From assembly GCA_003168335.1 (NCBI GenBank), contig PMSM01000014.1, forward strand, positions 1 through 64,000: a stretch of 64,000 bases of DNA, given 5' to 3'. The notes below the pieces were generated by a model. It was not told where the DNA came from and did no database searches. It saw only the letters and a list, made by a program, of their open reading frames with translations. The position numbers and the translations under genes are program-made. This document shows positions 1 through 27,117 of the stretch, in pieces. The DNA comes from Blastocatellia bacterium (GTDB lineage Bacteria > Acidobacteriota > Blastocatellia > Pyrinomonadales > Pyrinomonadaceae). Numbering within the stretch: the stretch's first letter is position 1; every line of letters starts with the position of its first letter.

Positions 1-23
1 CCGCGTCAACTCAACCGTTCGGC
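1..23 (+). other. attC site, right half only (L' and R')
   Basis: The window opens inside an attC. An L' arm (CCGCGTCAAC, 1-10) and an R' (GTTCGGC, 17-23) are seen with the same 6-base spacing as in the complete sites at 2429-2531 and 3047-3148. Recombination would occur between G17 and T18, so the first full cassette starts at 18. Confidence 0.8.
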
Positions 24-47
24 GCTTCTCTGAGCGAAGTATTAAAG

Positions 48-386
48 ATGAAGTACACCTTACAAAAAGGAGTGGACCTCAAACAACTCAAACGAGTATT
101 ACCCAAACGGTTTCAAGGCCTCGTTGATCCTCGAGTGGCGAACAGGGGAAAGGGGACGGTAATCATTTTTGGGGGCGAAAACGTCATTCGTTCGCAACAG
201 GTTCAGCCTATTCTCAAAGAATTGCCTGACAACGAAGTTGTGCTAGCGTACGCCTACAATCTCACGGCAGAATCCAAGGACCTCCTCCGGGCCCGAGGAG
301 TCCAGATTTACACGGAGAACGATTGGCACTGGACGGACGGAAGCTATACGGACATTAGAAATCATCGAAGCGACCGGAAATTGTGA
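48..386 (+). CDS. Cassette 1: small protein of unknown function
   Basis: A 112-residue soluble protein with no signal peptide or membrane segment. Its start lies 30 bases after the cassette boundary and its stop lies three bases before the R'' of the next attC, the usual tight fit of a cassette gene. The middle (about residues 35-75) alternates short hydrophobic strands with GG and charged turns (VIIFGG, EVVLAYAYNL), which suggests a compact alpha/beta fold. The C-terminus is polar and Arg/His-rich. I do not recognise the family; orphan proteins are normal cargo in cassette arrays. Confidence 0.7.
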   Translation: MKYTLQKGVDLKQLKRVLPKRFQGLVDPRVANRGKGTVIIFGGENVIRSQQVQPILKELPDNEVVLAYAYNLTAESKDLLRARGVQIYTENDWHWTDGSYTDIRNHRSDRKL

Positions 387-388
387 AC

Positions 389-485
389 GCGCCGAACAAA
401 TCGTTGGACCGGAGCGGCGGTTGCGCGTTTTGCATCATCATTGGTCCGGCGAAACTTGAATGAAGTCGCGCCGCCCGGTCAACCG
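389..485 (+). other. attC of cassette 1, interrupted by an IS
   Basis: R'' is GCGCCGAAC (389-397), the exact reverse complement of the cassette's first bases (17-25). L'' (GTTGGACCGGAGCGGCGG, 403-420) pairs with L' (CGCCGCCCGGTCAACCG, 469-485) with unpaired G and A bases, as in functional attC hairpins. The expected R' should follow within six bases but appears only at 2008, after the insertion sequence. Confidence 0.85.
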
Positions 486-1931
486 CTATGTGAATGTCAA
501 TAGGTGCGAGCGAGATAGGTTGGTGTTTTGCTTTCTGTTTTGTTCATAGTAGTAAAGGCTGTGGGAAACTCGGAGCGTTTTTAGCGCAGAGTTTTCCATA
601 GCCCAGTTCGTCTGAGCTGCAATTTCCTCAACCAGCAAGAGAGACTGACTGCTATTCGTGGCCCGACTCAATGGTCGGCGCACTCTCGTGGATGCGGCCC
701 TCTTGAGGGCGATCCCGAAGGCCCGGGTCCTCTGTCTCAAAAACGAATCTTCCAGTCCGGTGTTATCGGGACTGTTCGTTCTGTTAGAGGTCGAGGCGTT
801 CGCCTCCAAGTAAAAGGGGCCGGCGGTCTCCTCTGTGGTTAAAGGAGCTGTAGAAACTTCTCGTAAAACAAATGGCCGTTGCTCTTTCAAGACGGCATAG
901 ATACGCGTCGTCAACTTACGAGTCACGGCCACTATGGCTTTGCGGGCCGCGACTTTCTTTGCATGACGCTGATAGACGCGGTCATAGAACTCGCGCAGTT
1001 CCGGGTCTTTTCTGATCGTGACCCAGGCGCTTTGAATCAACTTGTTGCGCAGCCGACTGTCACCGGCGCGCGTGATCTCACCGCGATTCTGTTTGTCGCC
1101 GGTCGAGTGTTCGCTCGAGACCAGCCCGAGAAAGCCGGCAATCTGTCGCACATTGGTGATCAGCGATGGACCACCCAGGCGAGCCACCAGGTGCGTGGCA
1201 ACGATCTCGCCGATGCCGGGCAGGCTCTTAAGCCAGGCAATGGACTGCCGCAGTTCCGCATCCTTTTTACAGTAATGACGAATCTGCTTTTGCGTGGCCG
1301 CGGCGGCGTTGAAGTTGAAATGCAGCGTCCCAATCAGCTGGTCCAACTTAAAGCGCACCGCTTCAGAACAAGGCAACGCCAGCAACTCATCCAGTACTCG
1401 TTGAGACCACTGCTTCTCTTTCCCCTCGTCTGAGGGGAACACTATTCCTTCATAGAGCAGCAGCGCCTTGATGCGACATTTGGTCGCCGTCAACTGCTTG
1501 ACCTGGCTGTCGCGCAGTTGCACCAGGTGACGTAGCTCGCGATACTTTGGCGCTGGCACATGAATGCTGCGTAGTTGACCACCGCGCAGATTCTCAGAGA
1601 GTTTCCTGGCATCGAGTCGATTAGTCTTCACTCGTGCTCCCGGAGCCGTCGGCACCATCGGCGGCGCCACTACTAAGCAAGGATGGCCCGCGGCCACCAA
1701 CTCATCATAGAGTCCGAAGCCCGTGGGCCCGGCTTCATAAACGAACGCCAGTCGCTGACCCGGAAATCGCTTCCGTACATAGTTCAGCAACTGCGCCGCA
1801 CTATAAGGTAGACGCAGCGATTGCATCAATTGCTGGTGATCGGTAAAAATCACTGCCATGCTCTTTTTGTCGACCTCGAGCCCGGCAAACACATCGTAGT
1901 TGCGTGGTATAAACTGAGTTTGAACTGTCAT
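486..1931 (-). CDS. IS110-family transposase (DEDD recombinase)
   Basis: The N-terminal RuvC-like DEDD domain begins with GLEVDKKSMAV (Asp), continues with YEAGPTGFGLYDEL (Glu) and has TNRLDARKLSENL (paired Asp). The C-terminal Transposase_20 region shows LPGIGE and then SSEHSTG with the presumed nucleophilic Ser, then GEITRAGDSRLRNKL. The ATG at 1931 is chosen because GAGGAG precedes it at normal spacing; an in-frame upstream start would run across the inverted repeat. Family proteins usually end near the position corresponding to about 855 here. This frame stays open for roughly 120 more residues and stops exactly at the element's edge, so the tail may be incidental translation of the non-coding end. 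Confidence 0.9.
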   Translation of the reverse strand: MTVQTQFIPRNYDVFAGLEVDKKSMAVIFTDHQQLMQSLRLPYSAAQLLNYVRKRFPGQRLAFVYEAGPTGFGLYDELVAAGHPCLVVAPPMVPTAPGARVKTNRLDARKLSENLRGGQLRSIHVPAPKYRELRHLVQLRDSQVKQLTATKCRIKALLLYEGIVFPSDEGKEKQWSQRVLDELLALPCSEAVRFKLDQLIGTLHFNFNAAAATQKQIRHYCKKDAELRQSIAWLKSLPGIGEIVATHLVARLGGPSLITNVRQIAGFLGLVSSEHSTGDKQNRGEITRAGDSRLRNKLIQSAWVTIRKDPELREFYDRVYQRHAKKVAARKAIVAVTRKLTTRIYAVLKEQRPFVLREVSTAPLTTEETAGPFYLEANASTSNRTNSPDNTGLEDSFLRQRTRAFGIALKRAASTRVRRPLSRATNSSQSLLLVEEIAAQTNWAMENSALKTLRVSHSLYYYEQNRKQNTNLSRSHLLTFT

Positions 1932-2007
1932 CGTCGCTTCTCCTCGAACAGGCTGCTCGCAGCTCATTCTAGACAACCGACCTGACATTCAACATACATG
2001 TCTCCAT
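486..2007 (-). mobile_element. IS110-family (IS1111-type) insertion sequence inside attC
   Basis: About 1.5 kb separates the L' arm (ending 485) from the R' (GTTATCC, 2008) of one attC. A nine-base inverted repeat, TGAATGTCA at 491-499 and TGACATTCA at 1983-1991, lies a few bases inside both ends. Subterminal rather than terminal inverted repeats are typical of the IS1111 branch of IS110, and a subgroup of IS1111 elements is known to target attC sites. No flanking target duplication is evident, as expected for the family. The exact end bases are uncertain by several nucleotides. Confidence 0.8.
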
Positions 2008-2014
2008 CGTTATC
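2008..2014 (+). other. R' core of the interrupted attC; start of cassette 2
   Basis: GTTATCC followed by GGC matches, as reverse complement, the R'' of cassette 2's own attC (GCCGGATAAC, 2429-2438). This identifies the boundary on the far side of the insertion sequence. Confidence 0.8.
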
Positions 2015-2024
2015 CGGCTGACCG

Positions 2025-2420
2025 ATGTTAACTAAACTAACAGTTGGGTTGCTGATGCTCGCTTGCACTGTGGTGGCGCAATCGCCGACCGCACGAACCC
2101 CGAGTTCCTGTCGCGCCCGTTCGGACTTGGTCGGCAAATGTTTTGTCGTGCATGGACGGCTATCGGTTTACAATGGCACACCGAGCATTCGGTTGTGGCC
2201 CGTTGGCAGTAAGCGGTTGCTCGGCGTCCTCGACCCAGAAGATATCTCGGTTGTGCCTAGCCGAAATACGATTCCCGCATCTATCGAAAGCAAACTCGAT
2301 TTCGACAAAGATGTGTTTGGAGACTTTCTGGTTTGTCCAATTGATCGATCGCGACCCGGCAGAATGCAAACGGTTTGTATCGCTTCTGGCAAAAACCTGT
2401 TCGTTCGTACGCATAAATAA
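2025..2420 (+). CDS. Cassette 2: secreted protein of unknown function
   Basis: A 131-residue protein whose first 19 residues form a signal peptide (hydrophobic LTVGLLMLACTVV, then an AQS cleavage region). The mature part is small and strand-rich with four Cys residues (C29, C38, C104, C117 approximately), which could form disulfides after export. The start is 17 bases into the cassette and the stop lies just before the attC R''. No family was recognised. Being directly downstream of the IS, it may have lost transcription from an upstream integron promoter. Confidence 0.75.
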   Translation: MLTKLTVGLLMLACTVVAQSPTARTPSSCRARSDLVGKCFVVHGRLSVYNGTPSIRLWPVGSKRLLGVLDPEDISVVPSRNTIPASIESKLDFDKDVFGDFLVCPIDRSRPGRMQTVCIASGKNLFVRTHK

Positions 2421-2428
2421 TGTCGTGC

Positions 2429-2531
2429 GCCGGATAACAAATCGTTGGACGCGAGCGGAATCAGCGGGCTTGTCATCGACAACTTGTCCGTCACGTGGTT
2501 GTCTCCCGCCGCGTCAACTCAGACGTTCGGC
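2429..2531 (+). other. attC site of cassette 2
   Basis: R'' GCCGGATAAC (2429-2438), L'' GTTGGACGCGAGCGG, and L' CCGCCGCGTCAAC followed by R' GTTCGGC (2525-2531). The arms pair with one unpaired G (GTTGGACGCG against CGCGTCAAC). The central part is nearly identical to the attC at 3047-3148, while the R'' differs because it tracks the cassette start. Confidence 0.9.
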
Positions 2532-2546
2532 GGCTCTTGAACATCT

Positions 2547-3029
2547 ATGTCAATAATTTCCGCACTCCTGATCGCATTTGCAATTTGCGTCATATCCGCG
2601 ATGTTGGAGGGATTGTTCGCGGGGAAGGGCGTGAAAGCCTTCATCGCAAATCTACGCACCCCATCTTATGCCCCGCCGTTTTGGGTGTGGATTATTATCG
2701 GTGTGTTCTACTACATCATCTCTTTCCTTATCAGCTATCAAGTTCTTAGACATAGCGGCGACAGCTTTTTGAAAGCCGTATCTTTGGCGCTCCTTTTGGC
2801 GATGATGGGTATAAATGCGGTTTGGAATTATGTGTTCTTCCGGGCTCACAATTTGTTTCTTAGTTTCTTTGCATTCATTCCATATCCACTGCTTGCCATT
2901 GGTTTATTTGCTTGCCTGCTCCAATTTGAGCCGCTTGCCGCGTGGATGTTTCTGCCTTATCTCGCATATTTGAATTATGCCGCTTTTATCTGTTACAAAT
3001 TTTGGAAGCTGAATGAGAACCCGGGTTGA
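2547..3029 (+). CDS. Cassette 3: TspO/MBR-family membrane protein
   Basis: A 160-residue protein with five predicted membrane helices (about residues 3-22, 44-66, 80-97, 104-124, 128-149). Family features are the loop after helix 1 with PSYAPPFWVW, the MGINAVWNYVFF stretch, and a last helix with LPYLAYLNYAAFICYKFWKLN. TspO proteins bind porphyrins and related ligands and act in stress responses in bacteria. The usual Trp content is partly replaced by Tyr and Phe, so it is a divergent member. It starts 21 bases into its cassette. A TspO-like cargo in an integron is unusual. Confidence 0.75.
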   Translation: MSIISALLIAFAICVISAMLEGLFAGKGVKAFIANLRTPSYAPPFWVWIIIGVFYYIISFLISYQVLRHSGDSFLKAVSLALLLAMMGINAVWNYVFFRAHNLFLSFFAFIPYPLLAIGLFACLLQFEPLAAWMFLPYLAYLNYAAFICYKFWKLNENPG

Positions 3030-3046
3030 AGTTTTATCCCCAGCCG

Positions 3047-3148
3047 CCGCCGAACAAATCGTTGGACGCGAGCGGAACCAGCGGGCTTGTCATCGACAAC
3101 TTGTCCGTCACGTGGTTGTCGCCCGCCGCGTCAACTCGGACGTTCGGC
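3047..3148 (+). other. attC site of cassette 3
   Basis: R'' CCGCCGAAC (3047-3055) is the reverse complement of the cassette 3 start (2525-2533). L'' and L' are the same as in the 2429-2531 site, and R' is GTTCGGC (3142-3148). Near-identity of the two sites over about 90 bases indicates cassettes drawn from the same resident pool. Confidence 0.9.
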
Positions 3149-3201
3149 GCTTGTTCGTAGTTTAGTAAGATAGTCACGCATATAATTCACTTGGAGGACT
3201 C

Positions 3202-3399
3202 ATGAATCGTTATCGTATTTTGGGTGCAATAGCTCTTATTTGGGGTGGCGCTTTGCTTCTCTCTCGCTTACTTGGATTCAGCCGAATTGAAGGCAGTGGC
3301 GCGTATGGCGCCGGACAATATCTGGGGCTAATATTTGGCGGACTATTATTTATTGCGGGTTTGTATGCAGTTATCAAAGGCGGGAGAAAGAAGTCTTGA
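3202..3399 (+). CDS. Cassette 4: small two-helix membrane protein
   Basis: A 65-residue protein with two hydrophobic helices (about residues 5-24 and 40-59) joined by a polar Gly-rich turn, and a basic tail KGGRKKS that should stay in the cytoplasm. A clear TTGGAGGA ribosome site lies just upstream of the ATG. No family assignment. It is short, but its place in the middle of a cassette with both boundaries intact supports it as the real cargo. Confidence 0.75.
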   Translation: MNRYRILGAIALIWGGALLLSRLLGFSRIEGSGAYGAGQYLGLIFGGLLFIAGLYAVIKGGRKKS

Positions 3400-3421
3400 C
3401 TGCGCTGTCTCCTTTCATGCC

Positions 3422-3530
3422 GCGCCCAACAAGTCATTGCAGGTGAGCCGCGATTGATCGTCTCTCAAGTTCAAAGATCAAATCCCGCCTAAAGGCTGCT
3501 CGCGCGGCCACCTGAATTCCATCGTTAGAT
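3422..3530 (+). other. attC site of cassette 4 (different arm type)
   Basis: R'' GCGCCCAAC (3422-3430) matches the cassette start (3142-3150) with one mismatch. L'' TTGCAGGTGAGCCGCG pairs with L' CGCGCGGCCACCTGAA with unpaired G and A bases, and R' is GTTAGAT (3524-3530). The arms differ from those at 2429 and 3047 but resemble the next site at 4282, so the array mixes at least two attC lineages. Confidence 0.85.
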
Positions 3531-3639
3531 AACATCAGGTTGAATAGTTGCCGCATCGAAACGCTTGACCCGATCTTAATATCGGCGTACAAGTGCCTTG
3601 CTTCAAACTCGCCGGCTTTCAGAATAGAAAGGAACGTTA

Positions 3640-4194
3640 ATGAGACATGTGTTAGTAGCGGCGACGCTTATGATCGCCCTCTCAAGTTTGGCTTTGGCGG
3701 ACGATTTTCGTCCAATCTTTCATCCTCCGACCATCAGCATTGTAGAGGCCTTAGAGCAAGACCCAGACAATTTCAGTACCCTCATAGGCCTACTTAGGAA
3801 GGCTGATCTCAAAGAGTTGCGTGACGCTACAGCGTCGTACACGATATTGGCTCCCACGAATGGTGCGTTTGCTAAACTCTCTCCTGAGTACGTCACCAAG
3901 TTGACGAATGACCCGGCGAAGCTGCGTCAATTCCTACTTACACATCTGCTGTCCGGCAAGGTCATGTTCAGGCAAATGTTTGCGCCGGACAAAGCCGGGG
4001 TTGCGAAGAAGAATGTAACTGAGTCACTCACAACTGCCGATGGCGGTCTGGCATATTTTGTATGTAATGAGCATCCTGTTGACCCCGCGAATGAACACCA
4101 TCCCCTTATTAACAAGAAGGCGCGTGTCCTCAAGGGCGACATAGAAGGGAAATATTCCGTCATCCACGTGATTGATACAGTGCTTGTACCCTGA
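3640..4194 (+). CDS. Cassette 5: secreted fasciclin (FAS1) domain protein
   Basis: A 184-residue protein with an N-terminal signal peptide (MRHVLVAATLMIALSSLALA, cleaved near ADD) and a single FAS1 domain. The H1 motif is YTILAPTNGAFAKL (about residues 68-81), the segment around residue 107 gives LRQFLLTHLLSGKV, and the H2-like end is YSVIHVIDTVLVP. FAS1 domains mediate adhesion outside the cell or in the periplasm. Full family length, so it looks intact. The gene sits about 115 bases into its cassette, further than its neighbours; no promoter was assigned there. Confidence 0.85.
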   Translation: MRHVLVAATLMIALSSLALADDFRPIFHPPTISIVEALEQDPDNFSTLIGLLRKADLKELRDATASYTILAPTNGAFAKLSPEYVTKLTNDPAKLRQFLLTHLLSGKVMFRQMFAPDKAGVAKKNVTESLTTADGGLAYFVCNEHPVDPANEHHPLINKKARVLKGDIEGKYSVIHVIDTVLVP

Positions 4195-4281
4195 AAGCTC
4201 AACCCTCAATCGGTGAGGGGGAGGGTTGTCAGAAATAGCGCACAAGGATCGGTCTCGGGTATTGAGTGGGCACCCCACGAT

Positions 4282-4392
4282 GTTATCTAACACGTCGTTG
4301 CAGGTGGGCGCGGGATAGCACCTTTCTCAACTAGCTCTGTTCGGCGTAGATTGCGTGTCACCACCCGCGCCACCTGCACTCAATCGTTCGGG
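4282..4392 (+). other. attC site of cassette 5
   Basis: R'' GTTATCTAAC (4282-4291) is a ten-base perfect reverse complement of the cassette 5 start GTTAGATAAC (3524-3533). L'' TGCAGGTGGGCGCGGG pairs with L' CCCGCGCCACCTGCA leaving one unpaired G. R' is GTTCGGG (4386-4392). Confidence 0.9.
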
Positions 4393-4438
4393 TCCGGCGG
4401 TGTTTGCTTCCAGTTCTCGCCGGGCGTTTGGGCCAACG

Positions 4439-5296
4439 ATGAAGAAACAATCGCTACTCTTCCGCCTGCTCCTCTTCTATGGCAGCCGGGTGCCGTACCA
4501 TCGCGGCAAGGGCTGGCTCATCGAGCGCTGGCTGCGTTTCTTCAATCTGCACGTGGACGAGGAATTCGATATTGTGCGTGAAGGGCTTCGCTGGCGCCTG
4601 AACCCTGCGGATTTTGTCCACGCAGATGTTTTCTGGCTCGGTCGCAAGGACTACTATGACGTCTACCATCTCCAACGGATGCTTAAACCAGGCGATGTGT
4701 GTTTTGATGTCGGCGCGAATTTCGGATACTACTCGGTGGTGCTGGCATCTCGGCTCAAGAAGAAATGCGTGATTCACGCCTTTGAACCAAACCCGCCCAC
4801 GTTGGCGCGGTTGCGGCACCACGTGGCGATTAACGGCCTCGATGATGTGGTGCATGTCCACGACATCGCTTTGTCGGATCAGGAGGGCACGGCGGCCCTG
4901 GCCACGAAGGAGGGCAACTCCGGCGGAACCCACATCGTGGCCTCAGACGCGACGTCCACGCTCGTGCGACTCAGCACGCTCGACGCCTTTTGCGACGAGC
5001 AGCGGCTCACGCGCCTCGATGCCGTCAAGATCGACGTCGAAGGATTTGAAGAGCGGGTCCTGCTCGGCGGCCAGCGGACCCTCAAGCGCTGGCGGCCCGT
5101 TCTGCTCCTCGAACTGGAGCCGGCGCGGCTTCGTGACAAGCAAACGTCGGTCGAACGCGTTGTAGTCCTGCTGCAAGAGCTGGGTTATGCGTTGTTCGTT
5201 AGCCGCCGGCGAACTCTGGAACCTTTGCGTCATCTGCCGGAAGGCGACGATGCGCAAATGAATGTGTTCTGCTTGCCCCAGCCGGGCGTTATTTGA
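4439..5296 (+). CDS. Cassette 6: FkbM-family SAM-dependent methyltransferase
   Basis: A class I methyltransferase of the FkbM type, which usually O-methylates sugars or polyketide-like products. Motif I is CFDVGANFGYYSVVL, the acidic ribose-binding strand is IHAFEPNP, and the C-terminal family block is LDAVKIDVEGFEERVLLGG. About 285 residues, near family length. The reading frame is open further upstream to 4355, but that stretch lies across the attC. The ATG at 4439 is inside the cassette (boundary 4386) and starts MKKQSLLFR, so it is preferred. Glycan modification is a plausible role, but no glycan genes adjoin it here. Confidence 0.85.
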   Translation: MKKQSLLFRLLLFYGSRVPYHRGKGWLIERWLRFFNLHVDEEFDIVREGLRWRLNPADFVHADVFWLGRKDYYDVYHLQRMLKPGDVCFDVGANFGYYSVVLASRLKKKCVIHAFEPNPPTLARLRHHVAINGLDDVVHVHDIALSDQEGTAALATKEGNSGGTHIVASDATSTLVRLSTLDAFCDEQRLTRLDAVKIDVEGFEERVLLGGQRTLKRWRPVLLLELEPARLRDKQTSVERVVVLLQELGYALFVSRRRTLEPLRHLPEGDDAQMNVFCLPQPGVI

Positions 5297-5366
5297 AATG
5301 GCGACAGTTTGGATCTTCGAGCCGAGCCGTCCGCTCAGCGGACCGGCCACGCGATTGACATCTCCT

Positions 5367-5419
5367 CGGACCGGAACGCCATCCCCGCGTGAGCCGGCTG
5401 CTCAGCTCGGTCGTTAGGA
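5367..5419 (+). other. Probable short attC of cassette 6
   Basis: CGGACCGGAAC (5367-5377) is the reverse complement of the cassette 6 start GTTCGGGTCCG (4386-4396) with one mismatch. A TGAGC/GCTCA hairpin follows, and R' is GTTAGGA (5413-5419). It is only about 53 bases long, and the L arms are weaker than in the upstream sites, so the left boundary is tentative. Confidence 0.5.
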
Positions 5420-5430
5420 GGCCGCTAATT

Positions 5431-6345
5431 TTGGACGTAGTAACCGGCGCTTTTGGATACATCGGAAAATACATCACGAAAGCTCTGCTCGAGCGCGGAA
5501 GAGACGTGCGCACCATCACAACTCACCCGACCAAGCCGAATTCTTTTGGAACCGCCGTCAAAGCGTTCTCTTACAATTTCAACAACCCGGATCAATTGAC
5601 TCGGACGCTGGACGGGGCAGAATCGCTATATAACACCTATTGGGTCCGATTCCCCTTCGATGGTCAGACCTACGAATCGGCTCTTGCCAACACACAGACA
5701 CTCTTTCAATGTGCGAAACGAGCGGGTGTAAAGAGAATCGTGCACATCGGCGTTACCCAAGCTTCCGTCAATTCTGATTTGCCCTATTACAGCGGCAAGG
5801 CACTCCAGGAATCAATCTTGAGCGAATCGGGGATTCCTTTTTCCATCGTTCGGCCCACGCTGGTGTTTGGACAAGAAGATATCCTGGTTAACAACATTGC
5901 GTGGTTAATTCGAACAAGTCCGATATTTCCAATCTTCGGATCCGGGCTTTACCGAGTGCAACCGGTGTTTGTGGAAGATTTGGCGGAGATCGCTGTCCAC
6001 CAATCGACGAGCTCGCCGGGAGCCATAGTAGACGCGATTGGGCCGGAAACATTTACGTTTCAAGAGTTAGTAACATTAATTGCCGACAAGATAGGCAAGA
6101 AACCAAGAATCGTGAAGGTTCCTCCGGCTGTCGGTATTCTTTGTGGTCAGATCCTCGGACTATTTCTCAGTGATATTCTTCTCACTCGAAATGAATTGAA
6201 GGGTCTGATGGACGAGTTATTAACCTCACGTGAACTCCCCAACGCGACCACAAAGTTTTCAGATTGGTTGGAGAAAAATAAATCCACGGTTGGGAGCCGT
6301 TACTCATCGGAGATTGCCCGGCATTTCCGTTGGTCGGCCTCCTAA
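5431..6345 (+). CDS. Cassette 7: NmrA/SDR-like NAD(P)-binding protein
   Basis: An atypical short-chain dehydrogenase. The N-terminal Rossmann motif is TGAFGYIGKYITKAL. The middle has IVHIGVTQAS and YYSGKALQESIL (YxxxK-like Tyr and Lys), then SIVRPTLVFG, as in NDUFA9/NmrA-type proteins that bind NAD(P) and often act as regulators or epimerase-like enzymes. About 304 residues. The frame runs upstream to a GTG at 5389, across the attC. A TTG at 5431 is preferred because AGGAGG (5416-5421) lies nine bases before it and it is inside the cassette. The stop codon overlaps the R'' of the next attC. Confidence 0.8.
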   Translation: MDVVTGAFGYIGKYITKALLERGRDVRTITTHPTKPNSFGTAVKAFSYNFNNPDQLTRTLDGAESLYNTYWVRFPFDGQTYESALANTQTLFQCAKRAGVKRIVHIGVTQASVNSDLPYYSGKALQESILSESGIPFSIVRPTLVFGQEDILVNNIAWLIRTSPIFPIFGSGLYRVQPVFVEDLAEIAVHQSTSSPGAIVDAIGPETFTFQELVTLIADKIGKKPRIVKVPPAVGILCGQILGLFLSDILLTRNELKGLMDELLTSRELPNATTKFSDWLEKNKSTVGSRYSSEIARHFRWSAS

Positions 6346-6395
6346 CTAATCGTCGGATCGTGAGTCACGCTTCGTAATCCGATACATTGTTGGGA
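6336..6395 (+). other. attC of cassette 7 (60-base type)
   Basis: R'' GGCCTCCTAAC (6336-6346) is an eleven-base perfect reverse complement of the cassette 7 start (5413-5423). L'' TCGGAT pairs with L' ATCCGA, and R' is GTTGGGA (6389-6395). It is a short site like the classical 59-base elements, and the stop codon of the cassette gene lies within R''. Confidence 0.8.
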
Positions 6396-6401
6396 AATCT
6401 T

Positions 6402-6482
6402 ATGGCAACAGAGACACCGAAATTCGATCCGCTGAGATATAAACAAGCAACGAAGCAACAATTGCGAACCTTTGACCACTGA
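6402..6482 (+). pseudogene. Cassette 8 remnant: N-terminus of a SAM methyltransferase
   Basis: A 26-codon frame starts 12 bases after the last R' and begins MATETPKFDPLRYKQATK. This resembles the extreme N-terminus of UbiE-like class I methyltransferases (a FDPxRYKxxT start, from family knowledge). It then breaks off at QLRTFDH and a stop. No matching R'' for GTTGGGA was found downstream. It looks like the 5' end of a cassette whose remainder was deleted when the array joined the chromosome at about 6465-6490. Confidence 0.5.
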
Positions 6483-8759: not shown

Positions 8760-9158
8760 CCAGTGACCTCTGGCCGCTTCATTGTTCTGAGCCTTGGATA
8801 AAGAGTTATGGGCTCACTCGATCTGCGAGAAAGCCAGACATCACAAGTCCGCGCTGCGGACGAATGATAATCGCCCACCGCTTCATCGGTGGGATTGCGT
8901 GAAAAACAAAGTCGCAGTCCGTGCAGCGGACGGCTGAAGCTACGGCTTAGCGATGATGATTCAGCCGCCCGCTTTACGGGCTCAGGAATGGGTTTGGTTC
9001 GTTCACCCAGCACTGAAGTGCTGGGCTGGTTTCAGGCGTCCGCTGCGCGGACTCAACTTCAAGACATCACAAGGCTCGCCAGGTCCGCAACTTCACGTCT
9101 CAAGAAGGATGCTGGTGTATTATGTCCAATCGAAAAACGGACAGACTGACAAGTCTCA
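8760..9158. repeat. Cluster of small palindromes between genes
   Basis: No credible gene is present. The stretch holds several short hairpins in series, including GTCCGTGCAGCGGAC, GCTACGGCTTAGC, GCCCGCTTTACGGGC, CAGCACTGAAGTGCTG and CGTCCGCTGCGCGGACTC. ACATCACAAG occurs near both ends (about 8838 and 9064). The loops often carry a triplet such as TGA or TTA. Similar hairpin clusters occur at 34829-35052. Confidence 0.5.
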
Positions 9159-26577: not shown

Positions 26578-27117
26578 ATGAAAAAACAAACCAATCACAG
26601 CTGTCAGTTTCTCCTGGCAACAATCATTACGTTCGGCGTGTGGACTCCGGCTTTCGCGCAGCTGCAAAACAATCATTTTGCGCTTAACAACATTTTCCCG
26701 GTAACTGCGAACGAAAATGTTTGTTTGAAAAACGCGCCAGAGATTTCCAGTTTTACTTACACCAAACCAAATAGCTTGTTTGCAGCTAATTATAACGATT
26801 CTCCGAAGCCGGATTTTTCGGCGATGGAGCAATGGTACGAGATTGTCAAATACCAATATGACACTTCGGCAGGCTTTAACTTTCCATTGTTCGTTGTCGT
26901 AATCAAGAAGAAAGTGGAAAATGCACCGATACATTTTCATATAGGGTGGTTTGATGCGGACGGGGTCCGCGTCGGCATCGACGCCAATTTGATACCCGTG
27001 GCGGGCAATCTAAACACTGTGCCGGTTGGCGAACCCTTTCGGCTTCGTGCTTATGCGCCGGCTGAGAAGGACATGGCAAAAGTAAAATCCATCGTGGTTA
27101 AAAGGATTTTAGACTGA
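26578..27117 (+). CDS. Secreted protein of unknown function
   Basis: A 179-residue protein with a signal peptide (hydrophobic about 11-25, cleavage near AFAQL). The mature part looks like a beta-rich domain (EQWYEIVKYQYDTSAGFNFPLFVVVIKKKVE, FHIGWFDADGVRVG, FRLRAYAPAEKD). Base composition is AT-richer than neighbouring genes, which may point to recent arrival. AAAGGTGAAAGAAG precedes the ATG. No family recognised. About 240 bases upstream hold no gene. Confidence 0.65.
   Translation: MKKQTNHSCQFLLATIITFGVWTPAFAQLQNNHFALNNIFPVTANENVCLKNAPEISSFTYTKPNSLFAANYNDSPKPDFSAMEQWYEIVKYQYDTSAGFNFPLFVVVIKKKVENAPIHFHIGWFDADGVRVGIDANLIPVAGNLNTVPVGEPFRLRAYAPAEKDMAKVKSIVVKRILD

What the first reader, a model, noticed from the sequence alone, without database searches (positions are those of the whole stretch)
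1..6482. Integron cassette array in a probable Acidobacteriota genome
At least seven cassette junctions share attC structure, and for most of them the R'' heptamer is the reverse complement of the same cassette's first bases over nine to eleven positions (for example 6336-6346 with 5413-5423). The array mixes long and short attC types, so cassettes came from several sources. The cargo is not antibiotic resistance.
Basis: partly seen in the sequence, partly recalled or inferred. Interest (0 to 1): 0.75.

Follow-up and report, generated by a model that had tools for sequence, protein, structure and literature searches.

The report
Chromosomal integron with broken integrase gene
The start of this window is a real integron cassette array, a gene-collecting platform, in an Acidobacteriota bacterium; its integrase gene lies on the adjoining contig and is split by a tiny nuclease-coding insert, so the array is probably frozen, which is a new example of a known kind of system.

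Summary
A covariance model trained only on attC sites from other contigs of this genome returns five full-length attC sites in the window (391, 2432, 3049, 3424, 4285) as its five best hits, E 4e-28 to 4e-13. The window also opens inside a sixth attC. Two short junctions (near 5369 and 6336) are not supported by the model. The integrase gene is on contig C6, which also begins inside an attC. A same-genus genome without an integrase match carries the two flanks side by side, so C6 and C1 are most likely neighbours. The integrase is interrupted at VRDG|KGE by a 322-bp GIY-YIG insert with palindromic ends; two relatives show the empty site. One array attC is interrupted by an IS1111-type insertion sequence (485-2001), whose remnants sit at the same point of at least seven other attC-type sites. 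About 37 attC sites are scattered over the genome; 41 of 99 family members have a strong integrase match. Acidobacterial attC sites, attC-targeting IS1111 elements and inactivated integrons are already described. New member of a known kind; the GIY-YIG insert is the least familiar part.

The parts
1..23 (+). 3' end (L', spacer, R') of an attC cut by the contig start; its 5' part is probably on contig C6 (L009 1-55, other strand)
   Evidence: Model R1 partial hits on window 1-23 and L009 1-55; synteny with G118
48..386 (+). Cassette 1 ORF, 112 aa, no family match
   Evidence: cassette starts at 17-18 (GTTCGGCGC), 9-nt match to its R''
391..484 (+). attC of cassette 1, interrupted by the IS; R' side resumes at 2002-2016
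   Evidence: R2 hit 391-491 E 4e-28; sequence
485..2001 (-). IS1111-type insertion sequence: GCTATG-TGAATGTCA ... TGACATTCA-ACATACATGT; transposase frame 486-1931 (-); the 3' part (about 490-790) is the presumed noncoding guide-RNA region although the frame stays open through it
   Evidence: NF033542 IS110 family RNA-guided transposase E 5e-61; boundaries from comparison with uninterrupted attC sites
2025..2420 (+). Cassette 2 ORF, 131 aa, no family match
2432..2531 (+). attC of cassette 2
   Evidence: R2 E 9e-15
2547..3029 (+). Cassette 3 ORF, TspO/MBR family
   Evidence: PF03073 E 3e-19
3049..3148 (+). attC of cassette 3
   Evidence: R2 E 1.5e-18
3202..3399 (+). Cassette 4 ORF, 65-aa hydrophobic (probable membrane) protein
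3424..3530 (+). attC of cassette 4
   Evidence: R2 E 4e-13
3640..4194 (+). Cassette 5 ORF, fasciclin-domain protein
   Evidence: PF02469 E 1e-22
4285..4392 (+). attC of cassette 5
   Evidence: R2 E 1.4e-13
4439..5296 (+). Cassette 6 ORF, FkbM-family methyltransferase
   Evidence: TIGR01444 E 2e-32
5369..5419 (+). Doubtful short junction after cassette 6
   Evidence: No model support, fold z +0.8
5431..6345 (+). Cassette 7 ORF, NmrA / NAD(P)-binding epimerase-like
   Evidence: PF13460 E 3e-13, PF05368 E 8e-11
6336..6394 (+). Plausible short terminal attC; R'' equals the complement of cassette 7's first 12 nt
   Evidence: model E 3.2, so unconfirmed

Best explanation
Window 1 to about 6395 is the cassette array of a sedentary chromosomal integron in a Blastocatellia (Acidobacteriota) genome. 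The integrase gene sits on the adjoining contig C6, next to a D-Ala-D-Ala ligase gene, and is transcribed away from the array. By the established integron mechanism (inferred here, not shown), the integrase recombines folded bottom-strand attC sites to insert or remove promoterless cassettes. In the sequenced genome two insertions have damaged the system: a 322-bp GIY-YIG insert splits the integrase reading frame, and an IS1111-type element sits in the L'-R' spacer of the first complete attC. No other intact integron integrase was found, so the array and the scattered intI-less attC clusters are most likely immobile unless an integrase is supplied in trans.
For: Held-out attC model hits; stem covariation above all shuffles; R''/first-base matches; integrase family hits on C6 at E 6e-70 and 2e-56 covering residues 1-156 and 151-314; C6 begins with a 55-nt attC piece facing the right way; G118 carries homologues of the C1 and C6 flanks side by side; empty integrase site VRDGKGE in G116 and G115; IS boundaries defined by about 30 uninterrupted attC sites.
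Against: The sequence between C6 and C1 is missing, and further cassettes may lie there. No attI was identified. Single-site folding z-scores are weak. The last two junctions are not supported by the model. Inactivity of the integrase is inferred from the broken frame.
Confidence: 0.9

Rival explanations
1. The integron is still active: the interruption in the integrase is an assembly error, a population variant or a removable insert, and the array still exchanges cassettes.
For: The genome is an assembly of unknown origin; only one copy of the integrase is seen; the window attC sites keep strong stems.
Against: The insert is a coherent element with matched ends, and solitary copies of its palindrome lie elsewhere in the genome; the frame is broken by stop codons; no intron was recognised.
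Confidence: 0.12
2. The array on C1 and the integrase on C6 belong to two different integrons or clusters that merely both end in attC repeats.
For: attC sites are dispersed over at least seven contigs, and assemblies break at such repeats.
Against: Both contigs end in the same attC subtype, in compatible orientation, and G118 has the two flanks adjacent.
Confidence: 0.08
3. The repeats are not attC sites but another dispersed, IS-associated repeat family.
For: The same repeat type is scattered over the genome, and IS ends accompany many copies.
Against: Two unpaired extrahelical bases, AAC...GTT arms and covariation; R'' matches its own cassette start rather than the neighbour's; an integron integrase lies alongside.
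Confidence: 0.02

Closest known systems
Sedentary chromosomal integrons, including inactivated ones with CALINs in Xanthomonas (PMC12444791)
   Same: attC array of non-resistance cassettes, a broken intI, and additional intI-less attC clusters elsewhere in the chromosome.
   Different: Different phylum; intI is broken by a GIY-YIG insert, where the paper reports frameshifts, stop codons and deletions; located next to a D-Ala-D-Ala ligase gene instead of ilvD.
Acidobacteria chromosomal attC sites (PMC8352920)
   Same: Chromosomal attC sites of the same phylum, already numerous enough for a taxon-specific covariance model.
   Different: That model was not available here, so whether it scores these sites is untested.
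IS1111-attC group, e.g. ISKpn4 and ISPst6 (Tetu and Holmes 2008; Post and Hall 2009; PMC11187229)
   Same: IS110/IS1111-type transposase, subterminal inverted repeats, repeated insertion at one fixed point of attC.
   Different: Acidobacteriota host; the perfect inverted repeat is only 9 bp; guide segments not identified; identity to named IS elements was not measured.
Free-standing GIY-YIG homing endonucleases and REP/RAYT palindromic elements
   Same: A small GIY-YIG ORF; palindromic ends that also exist as solitary copies.
   Different: No intron; the nuclease is GIY-YIG, not the HUH-type transposase of RAYTs; the insert is only 322 bp and lies inside a conserved gene.

Membership tests
Integron | Array of attC sites (R''-L''...L'-R', extrahelical bases) alternating with ORFs in one orientation | tested here: met
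Integron | Integron-integrase gene (tyrosine recombinase, IntI family) | tested here: met
   TIGR02249 at E 6e-70 and 2e-56 on the adjoining contig; split, and neither half passes the curated cut-off alone
Integron | Intact integrase reading frame | tested here: not met
   322-bp insert with stop codons; the platform is therefore classed as an inactivated integron
Integron | attI site and cassette promoter next to intI | not tested
   Only inspected by eye upstream of intI on C6; no attI assigned
Integron | Integrase-mediated cassette recombination | not testable with these tools
   needs an excision assay
IS1111 family (attC-targeting group) | IS110/IS1111-type DEDD transposase | tested here: met
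   NF033542 E 5e-61, PF01548, PF02371
IS1111 family (attC-targeting group) | Subterminal inverted repeats, usually 11-13 bp | tested here: inconclusive
   9 bp perfect (TGAATGTCA / TGACATTCA)
IS1111 family (attC-targeting group) | Insertion at one fixed position of attC | tested here: met
   Same attC point on C1, C7, C12 and five places on C13, and in another genus
IS1111 family (attC-targeting group) | Downstream noncoding region giving a seekRNA with target-matching segments | tested here: inconclusive
   Region conserved in the C7 copy, but guide matches not above shuffles (p 0.20 and 0.25)
Group I or II intron (for the integrase insert) | Intron RNA core | tested here: not met
   No Rfam match up to E 0.1 on C6 1-2000

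The most novel reading that the evidence does not exclude
The 322-bp insert in the integrase is one member of an undescribed family of minimal mobile elements: a single GIY-YIG nuclease ORF of about 90 codons between short inverted repeats, often beginning CCC(C/T)GT, which inserts into conserved genes and leaves solitary palindromes. Homologues in other Acidobacteriota interrupt a four-helix-bundle-type gene at the same codon in two genomes, and one lies inside a 23S rRNA gene.
Probability: 0.3. Interest if true: 0.6.

Novelty: new member of a known kind. Interest (0 to 1): 0.33.

Why it matters
It adds a well-anchored case of an integron in Blastocatellia whose array, intI-less clusters, attC-targeting IS and integrase loss can all be read in one genome. 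Close relatives include the same locus without an integron (G118) and an intact integrase (G116), which makes gain and loss of a sedentary integron traceable. The GIY-YIG insert, with an empty site in relatives, is a handle on small nuclease-only elements.

Tried and rejected
Rfam gave only Acido-Lenti-1 RNA in the window, so attC models were built here. A regex attC finder was too permissive and was replaced by covariance models. The guide search in the IS noncoding region was not significant. Group I/II intron for the integrase insert: rejected. Plasmid and viral relatives of the GIY-YIG protein: none found. Its paired palindrome (exact, gap 5-35) occurs in no other of 395 Acidobacteriota genomes sampled. 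Defence-gene cargo: only one weak PADLOC hit, E 5e-4, to a methyltransferase region of the FkbM protein. A scan of viral contigs for a 15-nt attC core gave 48 matches that were not followed up.

Full report
CHECK OF THE OBSERVATION. The window is the first 64 kb of contig C1 of a 14-contig, 5.16-Mb genome. I collected attC-like sites by eye and BLAST and built a structural model from 13 of them. The stem forms standard pairs in 89.6% of cells (77.2% when shuffled), with covariation 0.322 against 0.124 (0 of 500 shuffles reach it); sliding the partner by one to three columns drops pairing to 35-45%. Because four window sites were in that training set, I built a second model (R2) from nine sites on other contigs only. 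Its five best hits in the window are exactly 391-491, 3049-3148, 2432-2531, 4285-4392 and 3424-3530 (E 4e-28 to 4e-13); the next is E 0.011. The window opens inside another attC (1-23). The R''/first-base rule holds for five of six cassettes tested (runs 9, 10, 10, 13, 12; mismatched cassette pairs mostly 3). This is expected, because the first bases of a cassette come from its own attC R' (established integron biology, from my own knowledge). The junctions after cassettes 6 and 7 are not supported by either model, although cassette 7 has a 12-nt match.

FREE ENERGY IS A WEAK TEST HERE. Single-strand DNA folds of the bottom strands of the four intact long sites give z-scores from +0.2 to -2.3. 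The family-level covariation is much stronger evidence than any single hairpin.

THE INTEGRASE. A genome-wide search for the integron-integrase family finds one such gene, in two halves, at C6 448-915 and 1220-1711; the other hits are much weaker. C6 also starts inside an attC, in the orientation expected if C6 reversed is followed by C1. In G118, a same-genus genome without an integrase match at E 1e-40, sequence homologous to window 19.9-13.5 kb runs into sequence homologous to C6 2.0-6.4 kb on one contig, with only about 1.7 kb between. This supports the junction and shows that the integron lies in the interval next to the D-Ala-D-Ala ligase gene (the ligase was named from its sequence by eye). 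G116 and G117 have attC sites about 25 and 190 nt from the same ligase gene. G116 is the Blastocatellia MAG UBA11740: the named-genome search and the handle search returned a contig of the same 8,981-bp length with the same match. In the family, 41 of 99 genomes have a strong integrase match, so the platform is common there.

THE INTERRUPTION. The integrase frame reads to VRDG, then a 322-bp insert (L009 912-1233), then KGEQDRVTMLP. G116 and G115 read VRDGKGE without a break. The insert has a 90-aa GIY-YIG ORF (PF01541 E 3e-16) and TTCACCCCGTGAGATA / TATCTCACGGGG ends, with an extra 40-nt hairpin at one end. The same palindrome occurs alone on C9, beside a selenocysteine tRNA gene, and on C14, in what looks like an attC arm. 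No intron was recognised. That the integrase is inactive is inferred from the broken frame.

THE IS. Window 485-2001 is an IS110/IS1111-type element. Uninterrupted attC sites mostly read CAACTCNNNCGTT; at the IS the flanks are CAACC / GCTATGTGAATGTCA and TGACATTCAACATACATGT / CTCCATCGTT, so the shared core is CT (CC on one side in this copy). The same IS end lies 4-5 nt before a GTT or GCT core on C7, C12 and at five places on C13, with a diverged copy on C5, and in another genus with an 89% identical transposase. Insertion at one end of attC by IS1111 elements guided by a seekRNA is known (PMC11187229). I could not identify the guide segments here (p 0.20 and 0.25).

CARGO. Two unknown proteins, a TspO-like protein, a small membrane protein, a fasciclin-domain protein, an FkbM methyltransferase and an NmrA-like protein; none is a resistance gene and none is a convincing defence gene.

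COMPARISON AND VERDICT. Chromosomal attC sites from Acidobacteria were numerous enough to build a phylum model in 2021 (PMC8352920), and inactivated integrases with dispersed CALINs are described in Xanthomonas (PMC12444791). The finding is a genuine, ordinary member of a known kind. The least familiar piece is the GIY-YIG insert. Among 23 loci of homologous ORFs (this one included), 6 have flanking inverted repeats scoring 11 or more, against 1% of mismatched flanks. Two of the loci (L169, L171) split a four-helix-bundle-type gene at the same codon (the gene was recognised by eye, not by a family search), and one (L182) lies in a 23S rRNA gene. Searches of open-access papers did not reveal a description of such elements, which is not proof of novelty.

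Noticed in passing
L009 (C6) 912-1233; C9 22171-22234 (L037, L237); C14 908310-908349 (L038): GIY-YIG insert with palindromic ends in the integrase gene, plus solitary copies of its palindrome beside a tRNA-Sec gene and in an attC-like arm.
   Followed up: partly
L182 (G236:C1): A short GIY-YIG ORF flanked by a near-perfect 22-nt inverted repeat inside a 23S rRNA gene.
   Followed up: partly
L169 (G151) and L171 (G425): GIY-YIG ORFs interrupt a four-helix-bundle-type gene at the same codon (IPSN/VPAN) in two genomes.
   Followed up: partly
C13 107-131 kb, C7 507.9 kb, C12 8.2 kb, C5 15.2 kb of the window's genome: Remnant ends of the window's IS in attC-type spacers, and a deletion derivative on C7 that keeps only the two IS ends.
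   Followed up: yes
C6 25102-25207 (L122): An attC with spacer CAACTGCTATGTTAGG instead of CAACTCNNNCGTT; GCTATG equals the outer 6 nt of the IS, possibly a scar.
   Followed up: no
window 9006-9053: Acido-Lenti-1 RNA, above Rfam's gathering score.
   Followed up: no
window 26706-26784: AT-rich inverted repeat that gives a marginal attC model hit (E 0.008-0.011).
   Followed up: no
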